From Nitrosomonas communis (GTDB lineage Bacteria; Pseudomonadota; Gammaproteobacteria; Burkholderiales; Nitrosomonadaceae), in assembly GCF_900114745.1 (NCBI RefSeq), contig NZ_FOUB01000006.1:1-64000 (forward strand): 64,000 nucleotides of DNA, read 5' to 3'. The translations under genes were made by a program, and so were the position numbers. The number at the start of each line of letters is the position of its first letter. Positions within the stretch are counted from its first letter, which is position 1. Below are positions 44,989 to 52,094 of this stretch, in pieces. The notes beneath the pieces were generated by a model. It was not told where the DNA came from and ran no database searches. It worked only from the letters and a program-made list of their open reading frames with translations.

Positions 44989-47900
44989 ATGATGATCAGC
45001 CATACAGAATCTAAATCTACGCCGCAAGTCTCACCTGGTTTGGGTAAACCATCCGTTAAAATTCGGATAAAACCTGTTCATACTTGCGTGCCTGGTAGAG
45101 CGCGCTATCACGTCAATATCTTACACCGCGCGAGTGCGTTGGGGCAGCAGCTGGAGCAGCAAATGGGAGCGATCTCAGGCATTATGGCCATTAGAGTGAA
45201 TGGCTTGACTGGATCGGTGGTGATTGTTTATGGCAAAGATATCGCGCTGGATGAATTGCCTTATTTGCTACTTGAAGCCTGCAAGCAAGCGATTAAAGGT
45301 CTTCGCTTTACTGGATCGCTAACCAAAACTGATACCAAAGCGTTAATCCATTTCAAAGCCTATTTCGATTCACTGTGGAGACATACGCAAAACTTATTCG
45401 CTTCAACGCGAGGCATCTCCGTAAGCCCAAGGGCGCCTCAAGATAATACCGATTGGCACGTCCTTGAGGTAAACCATATTCTTGAAAAACTTCAGGTTGA
45501 TGCGCACCAAGGCATGAATAAACATGCGGTGCAGCGCACGCTGGAAAAGTATGGCTTGAATCAATTGCCGGAAATTGCCCGACGTTCACCGCTTAGCATG
45601 TTTCTTAGTCAGCTGTTCACGTTGCCGGTAGGATTACTCGGAGCCTCTGCGTTAGTCTCGCTGGCAACAGGCGGGATATTGGATGCGGGCATTATTGTAG
45701 GTGTAGTGCTGATTAATGCGAGTATCGGTTTTTTCACGGAAATGCAGGCGGAAAGAATTATTAGTTCACTGACAAAAATTACCCCGCGGCATGCACAAGT
45801 GATACGTGATGGCGAACTGCAATCGATTCCGCATGCGCATGTGGCTGTGGGGGATGTGTTAGTGTTACAGCCGGGCGATTTTATTGCAGCCGATGCGCGT
45901 GTGATTAAAGCCAGTCAGCTTACCCTGGATGAATCAGCCTTAACCGGTGAAAGCATGCCCGTTTCGAAAAATACGTCACCCATTGACAGGCAGGATACAC
46001 CGCTCGCTGATCGGCGCAACATGGTGTACATGGGCACCATGATAACCGGCGGCAATGGTCTAGGCATTGTCATCGCGACCGGGGTTAACACACAGATTGG
46101 ACAAATACAAAGTCTCGTTGGCGAAGCGCATGCGCCTGAAACTCCCATGCAGCAGGAACTCGATCATATTGGTACCCAATTGGCGCTCACTAGTGGGGCG
46201 ATTTGTGTGGGGGTATTCGGCCTCGGCATGTTACGTGGCTATGGTCTATTACAAATGCTGAAGAGTTCAGTTTCGCTGGCAGTAGCAGCCGTGCCGGAAG
46301 GACTGCCTGCTGTGGCCACGACCACGCTTGCACTCGGTATCCGCAAGATGAGCAAATATAACGTAGCAGTCCGTCATCTTGACGCAGTGGAAACACTTGG
46401 TTCGGTGCAAGTATTTTGTCTGGATAAAACCGGCACCTTGACTTTAAACTGTATGACGGCTGTTACAGCTTATGTGGGCGGTAAGCACTATTTTGTGTCA
46501 GGCGAGCAATTGTTCGTGGAGAATAAACCTTTTGCCGGATTTTCTGATGACAGCTATCGGCGTTTCTTAGAGATTATCAGCTTGTGCAATGAAGCAGTAC
46601 AACAGAATAGCAAGCAGCAGATTAGCATGAATGGCACGCCGACAGAAAACGCCTTGCTGGAGCTTGCCAGATTGAGTGATTTGGATATTGACGCGCTGCG
46701 GCAGCGCTACCCTCACTACAAAATCAAGTACCGCGCCGAAAATCGGCCATATATGTACACTTTTCACCGTTTGCCGCGAAAACGGCATTTGATTGCCGTA
46801 AAAGGTAGTCCGCAAGAAGTATTAATGTTATGTGATTCTTATCAGGATCAAGACGGCATACATCCCATAGACGATGCGTTCCGTGTAGCGATGAGCAACA
46901 TTAATAATCAAATGGCAGGAGATGCACTGCGTGTGCTGGCTGTCGCTTACGCTGAAAGGCCAATCAGACCAATAAAAGACGAGGAGGCGCCTGTCAATTT
47001 GATATGGCTTGGTTTGGTGGGAATGACAGATCCTTTACGCACCGGTATGCCCGATTTGATGCGCTTGTTCCACCGCGCTGGCATTCATACCGTCATGATT
47101 ACCGGAGACCAATCCAGTACCGCCTATGCAATTGGCAAGCAACTGAATTTAAGTAACGGTAAGCCCCTGCAAATTCTTGATTCTACCCGCTTGGAAAAAC
47201 TTGATCAAAAAATATTGAGTGGCTTGATTCACAATGTGCATGTGTTTGCCCGTGTCAGCCCAGCCAACAAACTGCAAATTGTGCAAGCTATCCAGAAGAG
47301 CGGCAAGATTGTTGCAATGACAGGGGATGGCATTAACGATGGTCCCGCGCTAAAAGCAGCTAATATCGGGGTTGCTATGGGTGGCGCTTCTTCCGATGTG
47401 GCGCGTTCAGTCTCGGATGTCGTATTGGAAGACGACAATTTACATACCATGGTTGCCGCTGTGGAACATGGGCGTGCTATTTATAACAACATCCGCAAAT
47501 CTATTCACTATCTGATATCCACCAACATGTCCGAAATCGAAGTGATGCTGGCAGGTATTGCAATGGGAGCAGGTGAAGTATTAAGTCCGAAGCAACTTCT
47601 GTGGATTAATCTTGTAACTGACATATTTCCTGGGCTTGCTTTATCCATGGAAGCGCCAGCAGCAGATTTAATACGGCAGCCGCCACGTGATCCTCAAGAG
47701 AAAATCATCAGACGCCAGGATTTAATACGTATGGCGCGGGAATCTACAATCATTACTACAGGATCTATGGCGGCGTACGGCTATGGATTTTTACGCTATG
47801 GTATTGGTCCGCAGTCTAATACCATACTTTTCAACTCGCTGACACTCGCTCAATTGCTCCATTCGATTACCTGCCGCTCAGAAAGCCATTCCATATTTAG

Positions 47901-48186
47901 TCGCGGCACATTGCCGCGTAATCCCTATTTGAATTATGCTATTGCCGGGTCTGGCCTATTACAAGTGATGGCAATGTTGATTCCTGGTTTACGCAGTGGA
48001 CTCGGTTCATCGCCACTTAATGTGCTCGATTTGCTGGTCGTTGCAGGAGGAGCTGTGGCACCCATGCTGATCAATGACAGTTTCAAGCATATCCTCCAAC
48101 CTGAAATACACAGTCCACATGATCAAAGTGATACATGCACATCTACCACTAATGTTTCACAAACAAATAAGGAGACGGCAGCGTGA
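44989..48186 (+). CDS. P2A-type cation-transporting ATPase with N-terminal PGRxR domain
   Basis: A 1065-residue P-type ATPase. Residues about 20-105 form a small domain (HTCVPGRARYHV ... NGLTGSVVIVYGKD) shared with the proteins at 49473 and 50479. A cation-ATPase N domain (about 155-220), actuator (DESALTGESMPVSK), helix M4 with PEGLPAVATTTLALG, phosphorylation site DKTGTLT (Asp479), hinge MTGDGINDGPALKAANIGVAMG and C-terminal membrane helices follow. PEGLP and the overall layout point to the Ca2+ (P2A) branch, not to heavy-metal pumps, as no CPC is present. GTGA links it to metK. No clear ribosome-binding site is seen. Confidence 0.88.
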   Translation: MMISHTESKSTPQVSPGLGKPSVKIRIKPVHTCVPGRARYHVNILHRASALGQQLEQQMGAISGIMAIRVNGLTGSVVIVYGKDIALDELPYLLLEACKQAIKGLRFTGSLTKTDTKALIHFKAYFDSLWRHTQNLFASTRGISVSPRAPQDNTDWHVLEVNHILEKLQVDAHQGMNKHAVQRTLEKYGLNQLPEIARRSPLSMFLSQLFTLPVGLLGASALVSLATGGILDAGIIVGVVLINASIGFFTEMQAERIISSLTKITPRHAQVIRDGELQSIPHAHVAVGDVLVLQPGDFIAADARVIKASQLTLDESALTGESMPVSKNTSPIDRQDTPLADRRNMVYMGTMITGGNGLGIVIATGVNTQIGQIQSLVGEAHAPETPMQQELDHIGTQLALTSGAICVGVFGLGMLRGYGLLQMLKSSVSLAVAAVPEGLPAVATTTLALGIRKMSKYNVAVRHLDAVETLGSVQVFCLDKTGTLTLNCMTAVTAYVGGKHYFVSGEQLFVENKPFAGFSDDSYRRFLEIISLCNEAVQQNSKQQISMNGTPTENALLELARLSDLDIDALRQRYPHYKIKYRAENRPYMYTFHRLPRKRHLIAVKGSPQEVLMLCDSYQDQDGIHPIDDAFRVAMSNINNQMAGDALRVLAVAYAERPIRPIKDEEAPVNLIWLGLVGMTDPLRTGMPDLMRLFHRAGIHTVMITGDQSSTAYAIGKQLNLSNGKPLQILDSTRLEKLDQKILSGLIHNVHVFARVSPANKLQIVQAIQKSGKIVAMTGDGINDGPALKAANIGVAMGGASSDVARSVSDVVLEDDNLHTMVAAVEHGRAIYNNIRKSIHYLISTNMSEIEVMLAGIAMGAGEVLSPKQLLWINLVTDIFPGLALSMEAPAADLIRQPPRDPQEKIIRRQDLIRMARESTIITTGSMAAYGYGFLRYGIGPQSNTILFNSLTLAQLLHSITCRSESHSIFSRGTLPRNPYLNYAIAGSGLLQVMAMLIPGLRSGLGSSPLNVLDLLVVAGGAVAPMLINDSFKHILQPEIHSPHDQSDTCTSTTNVSQTNKETAA

Positions 48187-51071: not shown

Positions 51072-52094
51072 TTGCTGATATCGACTTACGCTTCACCTTG
51101 GCTGGAATTCCTGCTCTGCCTGATCGTAATCGGTTATGCCGGTGTCAAATTATCAGTATTGGGCGATGTGATCGCCGACAAAACCGGCCTGGGCGGTAGT
51201 TGGGTGGGTATGATAATGCTGGCTACTGTCACTTCGTTGCCTGAGCTGGTGACAGGCGCTATTTCCGTGAGCGTCGCTGGACTGCCGGATATCGCCGTGG
51301 GCAACGCCTTGGGCGCTTGTGTCATCAACCTTTTTGTTTTTGTGCTACTGGATTTTTTGCATCGTGGCGAGTCTGTCTTCCGGAAATCCAGTCAGGGACA
51401 CATCCTCTCGGCGAGTTTCGGCGTATTGATGATAAGTTTTGTTGGCTTCAGTCTCTTGCTATCCTATAACGGCTATCAGCTAAGTTTCGGACACGTGGGG
51501 CTTTACACTCTTATAATAGTCATCATGTACGGTGTGGTGATACGCAGTGTCTTCCACTATGAAAAAAAGCATATGGCAGATTTTGCCGATCATGGGCCAG
51601 ATCGGCGCCCAGGCTTGAGTCTCTTCCAGTCTGTGGCACGTTTTGCGGCCGCTGCTATACTAGTGGTGGTCGCGGCCATCGCGCTCCCTTTCGTCGGTGA
51701 GCATATTGCGCAGGATATGGGCTGGCACCGGAGCTTCGTCGGTACGATATTCATCGCCTTGGCTACCACTATTCCAGAGATTGTGGTTTCCATCGCTGCT
51801 ATGCGCATTGGTGCGCTGAATATGGCAGTGGCCAGTTTATTAGGCAGCAACTTATTTAATATATTGATCCTTGCAATCGACGATGTACTTTATACTCGTG
51901 GACCATTACTGGCGCATGTTTCAGCTGTACATGGAGTGTCAGCATTTTCCGCAGTGATGATGACTAGTCTGGCCATTATCGGGCTTTTCTATCGGCCCTA
52001 CGGTCGTGTTCTCTACACTGTCGGCTGGACGAGTCTCTTTATGTTCGCTGTCTACCTGTTCAACACGTATATTCTCTATCTGTATGAGCATTGA
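51072..52094 (+). CDS. Calcium/sodium:cation exchanger, CaCA superfamily
   Basis: A membrane antiporter of about 340 residues with the two inverted alpha-repeats of the CaCA superfamily: IMLATVTSLPELVTGAISV (first half) and IFIALATTIPEIVVSIAAM followed by NMAVASLLGSNLFNI (second half). About ten hydrophobic segments are present. The frame is open from 50952, but I place the start at TTG 51072 because GGGGAGG lies six bases upstream and the first membrane helix then begins at once. It would extrude Ca2+ in exchange for Na+ or H+, which fits the neighbouring P2A ATPase. Confidence 0.85.
   Translation: MLISTYASPWLEFLLCLIVIGYAGVKLSVLGDVIADKTGLGGSWVGMIMLATVTSLPELVTGAISVSVAGLPDIAVGNALGACVINLFVFVLLDFLHRGESVFRKSSQGHILSASFGVLMISFVGFSLLLSYNGYQLSFGHVGLYTLIIVIMYGVVIRSVFHYEKKHMADFADHGPDRRPGLSLFQSVARFAAAAILVVVAAIALPFVGEHIAQDMGWHRSFVGTIFIALATTIPEIVVSIAAMRIGALNMAVASLLGSNLFNILILAIDDVLYTRGPLLAHVSAVHGVSAFSAVMMTSLAIIGLFYRPYGRVLYTVGWTSLFMFAVYLFNTYILYLYEH

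What the first reader, a model, noticed from the sequence alone, without database searches (positions are those of the whole stretch)
44989..52094. Candidate undescribed divalent-cation system built around a PGRxR domain
One small domain with H-x3-PGR-x-R and N-x-LTGSV-x4-Y occurs three times: at the N-terminus of a P2A-type ATPase (44989), as a membrane-anchored protein (49473) and alone (50479). Between and beside them are a DUF5132-like protein, a divergent MetK and a CaCA exchanger, with an MgtE-like transporter next. Repeated use of one domain in pump and accessory proteins suggests a complex. Arg-rich N-terminal motifs are reported for the pumps of ferrosome organelles, so a membrane or storage function is conceivable, but this pump is of the Ca2+ branch.
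Basis: partly seen in the sequence, partly recalled or inferred. Interest (0 to 1): 0.75.

Follow-up and report, generated by a model that had tools for sequence, protein, structure and literature searches.

The report
Calcium pump paired with altered MetK
A calcium-type membrane pump in Nitrosomonas and other proteobacteria is nearly always encoded together with a relative of the enzyme that makes S-adenosylmethionine, but this relative has lost the residues that hold methionine, so it probably has a new job tied to the pump.

Summary
All three copies of the domain are Pfam HMA_2 (PF19991), over the curated cut-off, and they are the only three in this Nitrosomonas genome.

The neighbourhood is conserved well outside close relatives. 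I found 27 loci with an HMA_2-bearing P2A ATPase in two classes of Pseudomonadota. In 25 of 27 the next gene on the same strand is the divergent MetK ('MetK2'), 17 of them overlapping the pump gene by 4 nt. Searched the other way, MetK2 occurs in 12 of 369 and 2 of 308 sampled genomes, each time beside this pump.

MetK2 is one clade (100/100), apart from housekeeping MetK. In 25 of 25 copies Glu55 is lost (Arg in 22), Asp238 is His, Asp118 is lost and GAGDQG is absent; His14, Asp16, Asp163, Arg244, Lys245 and Lys265 are kept. It looks like an ATP/triphosphate-handling protein that no longer binds methionine.

The pump keeps SERCA-type Ca2+ ligands (27 of 27 at five positions). DUF5132 and HMA_2-membrane proteins lie at the same locus in 12 of 17 genera; EcsC, MgtE-like and phosphate-uptake genes recur in subsets. 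The ferrosome reading is not supported. What MetK2 does is inferred; no structure model could be obtained.

The parts
43957..44766 (+). EcsC-family membrane protein
   Evidence: PF12787 92.7 bits; EcsC also at other P2A-HMA_2 loci or on other contigs of the same genomes, and at one locus without this pump (L034)
44989..48186 (+). P2A-type (Ca2+-branch) ATPase, 1065 aa, with N-terminal HMA_2 domain at about 45076-45237; DKTGT from aa 479; SERCA-type ligand equivalents E437, N846, E849, N874, T877, D878
48183..49370 (+). MetK2: methionine-adenosyltransferase homologue without the methionine-site residues (E55 to R57, D118 to N123, D238 to H247, K269 to R278); overlaps the pump gene by 4 nt
49473..49973 (-). 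HMA_2 domain plus hydrophobic segments (aa about 120-136 and 145-161)
   Evidence: PF19991 63.2 bits over aa 6-159; hydropathy
49978..50337 (-). DUF5132 protein: hydrophobic stretch within aa 13-42, then a Glu/Ala-rich tail
   Evidence: PF17195 48.3 bits; hydropathy; tail read from the translation
50479..50769 (-). stand-alone HMA_2 protein, 96 aa
   Evidence: PF19991 53.7 bits
50952..52094 (+). CaCA-family cation exchanger (true start probably further in; the L014 homologue is 340 aa)
   Evidence: PF01699 97.2 bits
52301..53395 (-). MgtE-like transporter with CBS domains
   Evidence: PF01769 84.7 bits
38320..43757 (+). phosphate-uptake genes: PstS-like binding protein, permease 39418-40812, a second permease 40796-42103 (named by eye, not searched), pstB, phoU; upstream neighbours, possibly linked in function

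Best explanation
A Ca2+-pumping module. A P2A ATPase carries an N-terminal HMA_2 domain and is made, by coupled translation, together with MetK2. Small membrane proteins (HMA_2-TM, DUF5132) and stand-alone HMA_2 proteins hold the pump in a membrane patch through the shared basic domain, in the way PacL proteins hold P-type ATPases. MetK2 keeps the ATP/triphosphate/metal part of the MetK active site but not the methionine site, so it does not make S-adenosylmethionine; it acts as the soluble ATP- or tripolyphosphate-handling partner of the pump, either as a sensor that sets pump activity or as a tripolyphosphatase that ties Ca2+ movement to phosphate. SHOWN: the gene association, the tight or overlapping reading frames, the clade, the residue losses, purifying selection, the Ca2+-ligand residues. 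INFERRED: coupled translation, complex formation, Ca2+ as cargo, MetK2 activity, storage versus efflux. My own sub-estimates: module real 0.97; MetK2 not a SAM synthetase 0.85; Ca2+ the cargo 0.75; triphosphate/ATP role of MetK2 0.45.
For: 25 of 27 HMA_2-P2A pump genes are followed on the same strand by MetK2; 23 of those 25 lie within 6 nt or overlap, 17 by exactly 4 nt by profile-extrapolated starts. MetK2-first searches: 12 of 369 genomes, own included (564-690 bits, next best 430), and 2 of 308, all 14 beside this pump. None of 26 fetched regions without this pump has MetK2. MetK2 is one clade, 100/100. Of 17 MetK2-bearing genomes checked, 16 also show a housekeeping MetK; none was seen in G1107, 85% complete. 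Residues, 25 MetK2 against 16 housekeeping MetK: E55 0/25 (R 22, Q 2, H 1), D118 0/25, D238 to H 25/25, K269 to R 24/25 (H 1), Q98 1/25; H14, D16, E42, D163, R244, K245, K265 25/25, D271 24/25. PMC3853416 passages assign E55, Q98, D238 and K269 to methionine, D163 and D238 to ribose, H14 to catalysis. dN/dS of MetK2 in Nitrosomonas 0.057-0.093, the lowest mean of six genes. Pump equivalents of E309, N768, E771, N796, D800 kept 27/27. One of the two MetK2-less loci (Microvirga) has two CYTH-domain ORFs upstream, a triphosphate-binding fold by recall. Phosphate or phosphonate ABC-transporter genes lie within 10 kb in Nitrosomonas, G1092, G894 and G056.
Against: Two of 27 pumps lack MetK2 (L091, L099), so it is not indispensable; only one of them has CYTH. 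K165 is kept in 12 of 25 and F230 in 14 of 25, so ATP binding may also be weakened; the Q98 loop aligns poorly. Methyltransferase-like genes (named by eye) lie near L019, L095 and L097, which would fit SAM supply. No structure, binding or activity data. Phosphate-gene proximity is a minority (4 of 17 genera; some contigs are short, and only pst/phoU was looked for in all) and may be chance in some. Cargo is inferred from residues: the E908 position is E in 17 of 27 only, and PMR1-type pumps can also carry Mn2+ (recalled). In G941, G909 and Microvirga the pump's HMA_2 was seen by my own profile, not by Pfam's.
Confidence: 0.5

Rival explanations
1. MetK2 is a new adenosyltransferase: it still uses ATP, but the nucleophile is not methionine. 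With Glu55 and Asp238 turned into Arg and His the pocket would suit an anionic partner, giving an unknown adenosyl compound as a Ca2+-linked signal or ligand.
For: Catalytic H14 and ribose D163 kept 25/25 while the methionine-amino pair is replaced by Arg (22/25) and His (25/25); strong purifying selection.
Against: No biosynthetic partner gene was seen to recur in the neighbour clustering; F230 and K165 vary.
Confidence: 0.15
2. MetK2 is a second SAM synthetase supplying a methyltransferase that works with the pump.
For: Whole-protein match to TIGR01034 over its cut-off; methyltransferase-like genes, named by eye from their motifs, lie upstream of the pump in L019 and L095 and about 1.4 kb beyond the HMA_2/MetK2 end of L097.
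Against: E55, D238, K269 and GAGDQG absent in 25 of 25; the L019 gene has no Pfam match; no methyltransferase family among the 19 window proteins scanned; a housekeeping MetK is present in 16 of 17 genomes checked.
Confidence: 0.1
3. A PacL-like metal-efflux platform in which MetK2 is only a structural pseudoenzyme or chaperone of the pump.
For: DUF5132 has a hydrophobic stretch and a Glu/Ala-rich tail, like the description of PacL1 (PMC9374683 passages); tight or overlapping reading frames.
Against: Seven active-site residues are invariant in 25 copies, more than a scaffold would seem to need.
Confidence: 0.2
4. A membrane-bounded mineral store (ferrosome-like, or a calcium phosphate/carbonate inclusion).
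For: HMA_2 repeats and DUF5132; helical-looking Ala/Glu-rich proteins near some loci (by eye); phosphate-uptake genes near four lineages; P-type Ca2+ transporters have been suggested for Achromatium inclusions (PMC11773610 passages).
Against: The pump is not P1B; no inclusion is known here; that paper reports no P-type Ca2+ transporter in its magnetotactic carbonate formers.
Confidence: 0.12

Closest known systems
HMA_2 (Pfam PF19991) / CoBaHMA family (recalled: Gaschignard et al. 2024; not held)
   Same: Same profile; conserved basic residues; CxxC in 0 of 90 domains
   Different: Here in a P2A pump paired with MetK2; I know of no account of that, but could not read the CoBaHMA paper
P2A Ca2+-ATPases (SPCA/PMR1, LMCA1, SERCA)
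   Same: Best solved match human SPCA1, 494 bits; SERCA-type ligands kept
   Different: N-terminal HMA_2; N and E at the SERCA N768/E771 positions where SPCA1 has S and A; below the cut-offs of the three Ca2+-ATPase equivalogs listed (TIGR01522, TIGR01116, TIGR01517)
MetK / methionine adenosyltransferase
   Same: Three MAT domains; H14, D16, D163, R244, K245, K265 kept
   Different: Methionine-site residues and GAGDQG lost; separate clade; neighbour of a pump
PacL1-CtpC metal-efflux platforms (DUF1490)
   Same: Small membrane protein with Glu/Ala-rich part encoded beside a P-type ATPase (PMC9374683 passages)
   Different: No DUF1490 match listed at E up to 1; P1B zinc pump there, P2A here
P1B-type HMA_2/DUF5132 clusters of other proteobacteria
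   Same: HMA_2 copies and often DUF5132 round a P-type ATPase
   Different: Pumps are TIGR01525 heavy-metal type in 7 of 7 tested; no MetK2
Ferrosome (fez) clusters
   Same: Arg-bearing N-terminal motif on a P-type ATPase (recalled)
   Different: FezB is P1B (recalled); here P2A

Membership tests
HMA_2 (PF19991) | Curated Pfam score | tested here: met
   39.1, 63.2, 53.7 bits against 30
CoBaHMA | Conserved basic residues, no CxxC (recalled definition) | tested here: met
   Arg in 93% and 95% at the two Arg positions of PGRxR, His in 85% before it; CxxC in 0 of 90 (near-copies included)
CoBaHMA | Modified HMA fold | not tested
   Structure prediction answered busy at every attempt
P2A Ca2+-ATPase | Phosphorylated Asp and TM4/5/6 Ca2+ ligands | tested here: met
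   Asp of DKTGT and the E309/N768/E771/N796/D800 equivalents in 27 of 27 (register for TM5-6, E309 recalled)
P2A Ca2+-ATPase | TM8 ligand E908 | tested here: inconclusive
   E in 17 of 27, E in the window (register recalled)
P2A Ca2+-ATPase, PMR1 equivalog TIGR01522 | Equivalog cut-off 798 bits | tested here: not met
   617 bits
Methionine adenosyltransferase | Family profile TIGR01034 | tested here: met
   356 bits, cut-off 309
Methionine adenosyltransferase | Methionine-binding E55, Q98, D238, K269 and GAGDQG motif | tested here: not met
   E55 0/25, Q98 1/25, D238 0/25, K269 0/25, GAGDQG 0/25; 16 of 16 in housekeeping MetK
Ferrosome (fez) | P1B-6 ATPase FezB (recalled) | tested here: not met
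   P2-type by Pfam and best NCBIfam match
Ferrosome (fez) | Other fez genes | not tested
   papers not held; no fez profile used
PacL / DUF1490 | PF07371 match | tested here: not met
   No match listed for the DUF5132 protein at E up to 1
Calcyanin / ccyA carbonate formers | Calcyanin with glycine-zipper repeats (recalled) | not tested
   No calcyanin profile used

The most novel reading that the evidence does not exclude
MetK2 is a methionine-adenosyltransferase fold that has become a dedicated subunit or controller of a Ca2+ pump, reading ATP or tripolyphosphate (or adenosylating a new anionic partner), so that pump activity is set by energy or phosphate state inside an HMA_2-built membrane patch: a kind of ion-pump control that I know no precedent for.
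Probability: 0.35. Interest if true: 0.88.

Novelty: new variant of a known kind. Interest (0 to 1): 0.72.

Why it matters
MetK is a central enzyme, and a branch that has consistently lost its methionine site yet stays under strong selection next to a Ca2+ pump would be a clear case of such an enzyme re-used for ion transport. The pairing also gives a function to look for in HMA_2/CoBaHMA and DUF5132 proteins. NCBI's own model TIGR01034 accepts the window protein over its cut-off, so such genes are likely to be named as ordinary methionine adenosyltransferases; I did not check how the public records name them. The system is present in Nitrosomonas species, so it can be tested.

Tried and rejected
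Ferrosome reading: rejected on pump type. Recent duplication of the domain: rejected; each window copy groups with copies of its own kind from other genera (starred sets of 7 pump-region, 6 membrane and 7 stand-alone rows), and the four labels need 19 changes against 59.5 in shuffles. That tree has only 60 columns, its bootstrap had not settled, 4 of 27 pump copies (L019, L095, L096, L099) fall outside the pump group, and its 'P1B' label was set by length; 7 such proteins were checked as P1B. MetK2 as a general neighbour of HMA_2: rejected, 0 of 26 fetched regions without this pump (several come from genomes that have the pump elsewhere, and L035 gave no HMA_2 hit in that scan). My first count that every such pump has MetK2 had to be dropped after the Microvirga plasmid and L099. 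My gene caller missed MetK2 in five loci (L030, L031, L045, L047, L048); genome-search hits corrected that. Not followed: G1148, where only the HMA_2-TM match was seen; G933, which has stand-alone HMA_2, DUF5132 and EcsC on a 5.8-kb contig but no MetK2 in its genome and no pump seen. P2A pumps without HMA_2 were not surveyed. Four housekeeping MetK matches (second copies in G1009 and G894; G548, G718) got no locus or were not used and are outside the 16. RNA families: none at gathering threshold in window, L019, L039. Promoter/terminator scan: about as many sites as shuffles. Plasmids: MetK2 gave 167 records, all below 60% identity; HMA_2-TM gave none; the pump hit the 5000-record limit, and of the 12 rows listed one, Microvirga sp. 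VF16, covers the N-terminal domain; Pfam itself lists no HMA_2 in that pump and puts its two HMA_2-TM proteins below the cut-off. Literature: CoBaHMA and DUF5132 searches found 0 papers; HMA_2, ferrosome, calcyanin and MetK-with-pump searches showed no account of this system in the listings seen. Papers: passages only of PMC3853416, PMC9374683, PMC11773610, PMC12710302, PMC12836880 and PMC12748827; all others from listings or recall. The one genome-contig scan used the HMA_2-TM alignment and returned three Nitrosomonas records; whole-genome samples covered Pseudomonadota only.
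Full report
What is there. The window lies in a Nitrosomonas genome (nearest named records Nitrosomonas sp. Nm34, Nm33 and an N. communis MAG; genus from that match and the kinship labels). Reading frames at 43957-53395 are EcsC, a P2-type ATPase, MetK, HMA_2 plus hydrophobic segments, DUF5132, a lone HMA_2, a CaCA exchanger and an MgtE-like transporter, with phosphate-uptake genes and phoU just upstream. The repeated 'PGRxR' domain is Pfam HMA_2: three copies, no others found in the genome. 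The single DUF5132 match of the genome is here too.

Distribution. Within the genus, 3 of 25 genomes (own included) have HMA_2, each with three copies (5 of 41 genomes in that call as a whole), so the cluster is patchy. HMA_2 was found in 11 of 398 genomes of the phylum sample, 27 of 369 of the class and 8 of 385 of a second class. Order-level samples around two carriers gave 6 of 31 and 6 of 61.

The conserved core. I collected 27 loci with a P2A ATPase carrying HMA_2: 18 aligned, the Microvirga sp. VF16 plasmid and eight more loci of the second class. They are not all independent: 4 are Nitrosomonas, and the 27 fall in 17 genera. In G941, G909 and Microvirga the pump's HMA_2 was seen only by a profile built here, not by PF19991. 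MetK2 follows the pump on the same strand in 25 of 27; gaps run from -10 to 63 nt, 17 of 25 being -4 by extrapolated starts (the ORF starts of L097 and L098 would make it 19). The two without are the Microvirga plasmid and L099. MetK2-first searches gave the same answer: 12 of 369 genomes with 564-690 bits against at most 430 for the next matches, and 2 of 308. All 14, own included, lie beside such a pump. HMA_2-TM and DUF5132 lie at the same locus in 12 of 17 genera by my count; in three (G909, G1000, G1009) they are elsewhere in the genome or on another contig, and in two (G965, G1107) the contig is short. EcsC and MgtE-like genes are less constant, and EcsC also occurs at one P1B-type locus, L034. 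The CaCA exchanger beside the pump is largely a Nitrosomonas feature.

The pump. Best solved relative is human SPCA1 (494 bits), then Listeria LMCA1 and SERCA. Over TM5-TM6 the match to SERCA is gap-free (query residue 1 = SERCA1 742 by the table), which places N846, E849, N874, T877 and D878 at SERCA N768, E771, N796, T799 and D800 (ligand roles and the E309 and E908 registers recalled). The equivalents of E309, N768, E771, N796 and D800 and the phosphorylated Asp are kept in 27 of 27 pumps; the T799 position is T in 16 and S in 11; the E908 position is E in 17 of 27. SPCA1 has S and A at the N768/E771 positions in the printed alignment. This argues for Ca2+, possibly with Mn2+; it is not proof.

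MetK2. A tree of 17 MetK2, 15 housekeeping MetK and E. coli MetK puts MetK2 in one clade with 100/100 support. Against the 16 housekeeping sequences, 25 MetK2 (one, L096, cut by its contig end) have lost E55 (22 R, 2 Q, 1 H), D118 (11 N, 11 H, 3 other), D238 (25 H), K269 (24 R, 1 H), Q98 (kept in 1; the loop aligns poorly) and GAGDQG (0). They keep H14, D16, E42, D163, R244, K245 and K265 in 25 and D271 in 24. The published roles of H14, E55, Q98, I102, D163, F230, D238 and K269 are from passages of PMC3853416; the roles of D16, E42, D118, R244, K245, K265 and D271 are recalled. So the methionine pocket is rebuilt with basic residues, while the side that holds triphosphate, metal and ribose mostly stays. 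K165 (12 of 25) and F230 (14 of 25) are less constant, a point against full ATP use. MetK2 has the lowest mean dN/dS of the six Nitrosomonas genes tested, 0.074 (range 0.057-0.093; rough, some dS near 1), so it is not decaying. Of 17 MetK2-bearing genomes checked, 16 also show a housekeeping MetK; G1107, 85% complete, does not. The genomes behind L026 and L091-L099 were not checked for this.

The domain. Ninety HMA_2 domain hits from the loci (near-copies included) contain no CxxC and keep basic residues at the H, PGRxR and following positions. That is the recalled signature of CoBaHMA domains, proposed to bind anionic partners such as lipids; the paper is not held. Each window copy groups with copies of its own kind from other genera, which fits fixed, different jobs in one assembly; that tree is short and weak.

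How it probably works. The pump and MetK2 are made together; HMA_2 and DUF5132 proteins gather the pump at the membrane. PacL1 gives a tested precedent: a small membrane protein with Glu/Ala repeats that stabilises its P-type ATPase in membrane foci (PMC9374683 passages). MetK2 then would sense or hydrolyse ATP or tripolyphosphate. Two hints point to phosphate. First, pst/phoU or phn transporter genes lie within 10 kb in Nitrosomonas, G1092, G894 and G056 (the PstS of G894 is below its model's cut-off), and the G056 relative G1160 looks the same by eye. Second, the Microvirga locus, without MetK2, has two CYTH-domain ORFs about 1.5-3 kb upstream (CYTH as a triphosphate-binding fold is recalled; one of the two reads oddly after its CYTH part, by eye). 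The second hint is a single case; no CYTH was found at L099 or the other loci, with a weak two-sequence profile. Against this reading, methyltransferase-like genes, named by eye, lie near L019, L095 and L097, which would suit a SAM-supply role.

What is known. The searches named in Tried and rejected showed no account of this pairing in the listings seen. [quoted passage not shown] A storage role is therefore conceivable but untested.

Limits. Whole-genome samples covered Pseudomonadota only. No structure was obtained, as the prediction machine was busy at every attempt. Gene calls were made by a simple script and missed MetK2 in five loci before correction, so other genes may be missed or mis-started.

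Noticed in passing
window 56199-59050: ABC exporter gene followed by a DUF1854 protein gene, overlapping by 4 nt.
   Followed up: no
window 59665-61977: Cyanophycin-synthetase-like gene (PF18921 plus ATP-grasp and Mur ligase parts).
   Followed up: no
window 54714-55998: Sigma-70-family (ECF-like) factor followed by DUF3619 and DUF3106 genes.
   Followed up: no
L026 15038-15517 (-): In Nitrosomonas sp. Nm33 a 159-aa ORF upstream of the pump matches the pump's N-terminal HMA_2 region: a partial duplicate or broken copy.
   Followed up: no
L017, L018, L021, L032, L034 (and L020, pump type not tested): P1B-type heavy-metal ATPase clusters with HMA_2 copies and DUF5132, no MetK2: a sister kind of system.
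   Followed up: partly
L030 11003-11812, L031 7612-8514, L039 14484-15116, L048 8532-9569, L040 4168-4536, L088 9309-9680: Helical-looking, Ala/Glu-rich proteins near several HMA_2 loci; no Pfam match over cut-off for the five scanned (L031 not scanned), apolipoprotein-like in L048 at low score.
   Followed up: partly
L091 5749-7360: Two tandem CYTH-domain ORFs upstream of the MetK2-less pump on the Microvirga sp. VF16 plasmid.
   Followed up: partly
L019 14183-15454, L091 12732-14030, L034 13150-14451: A DUF445-type protein recurs at three HMA_2 loci.
   Followed up: no
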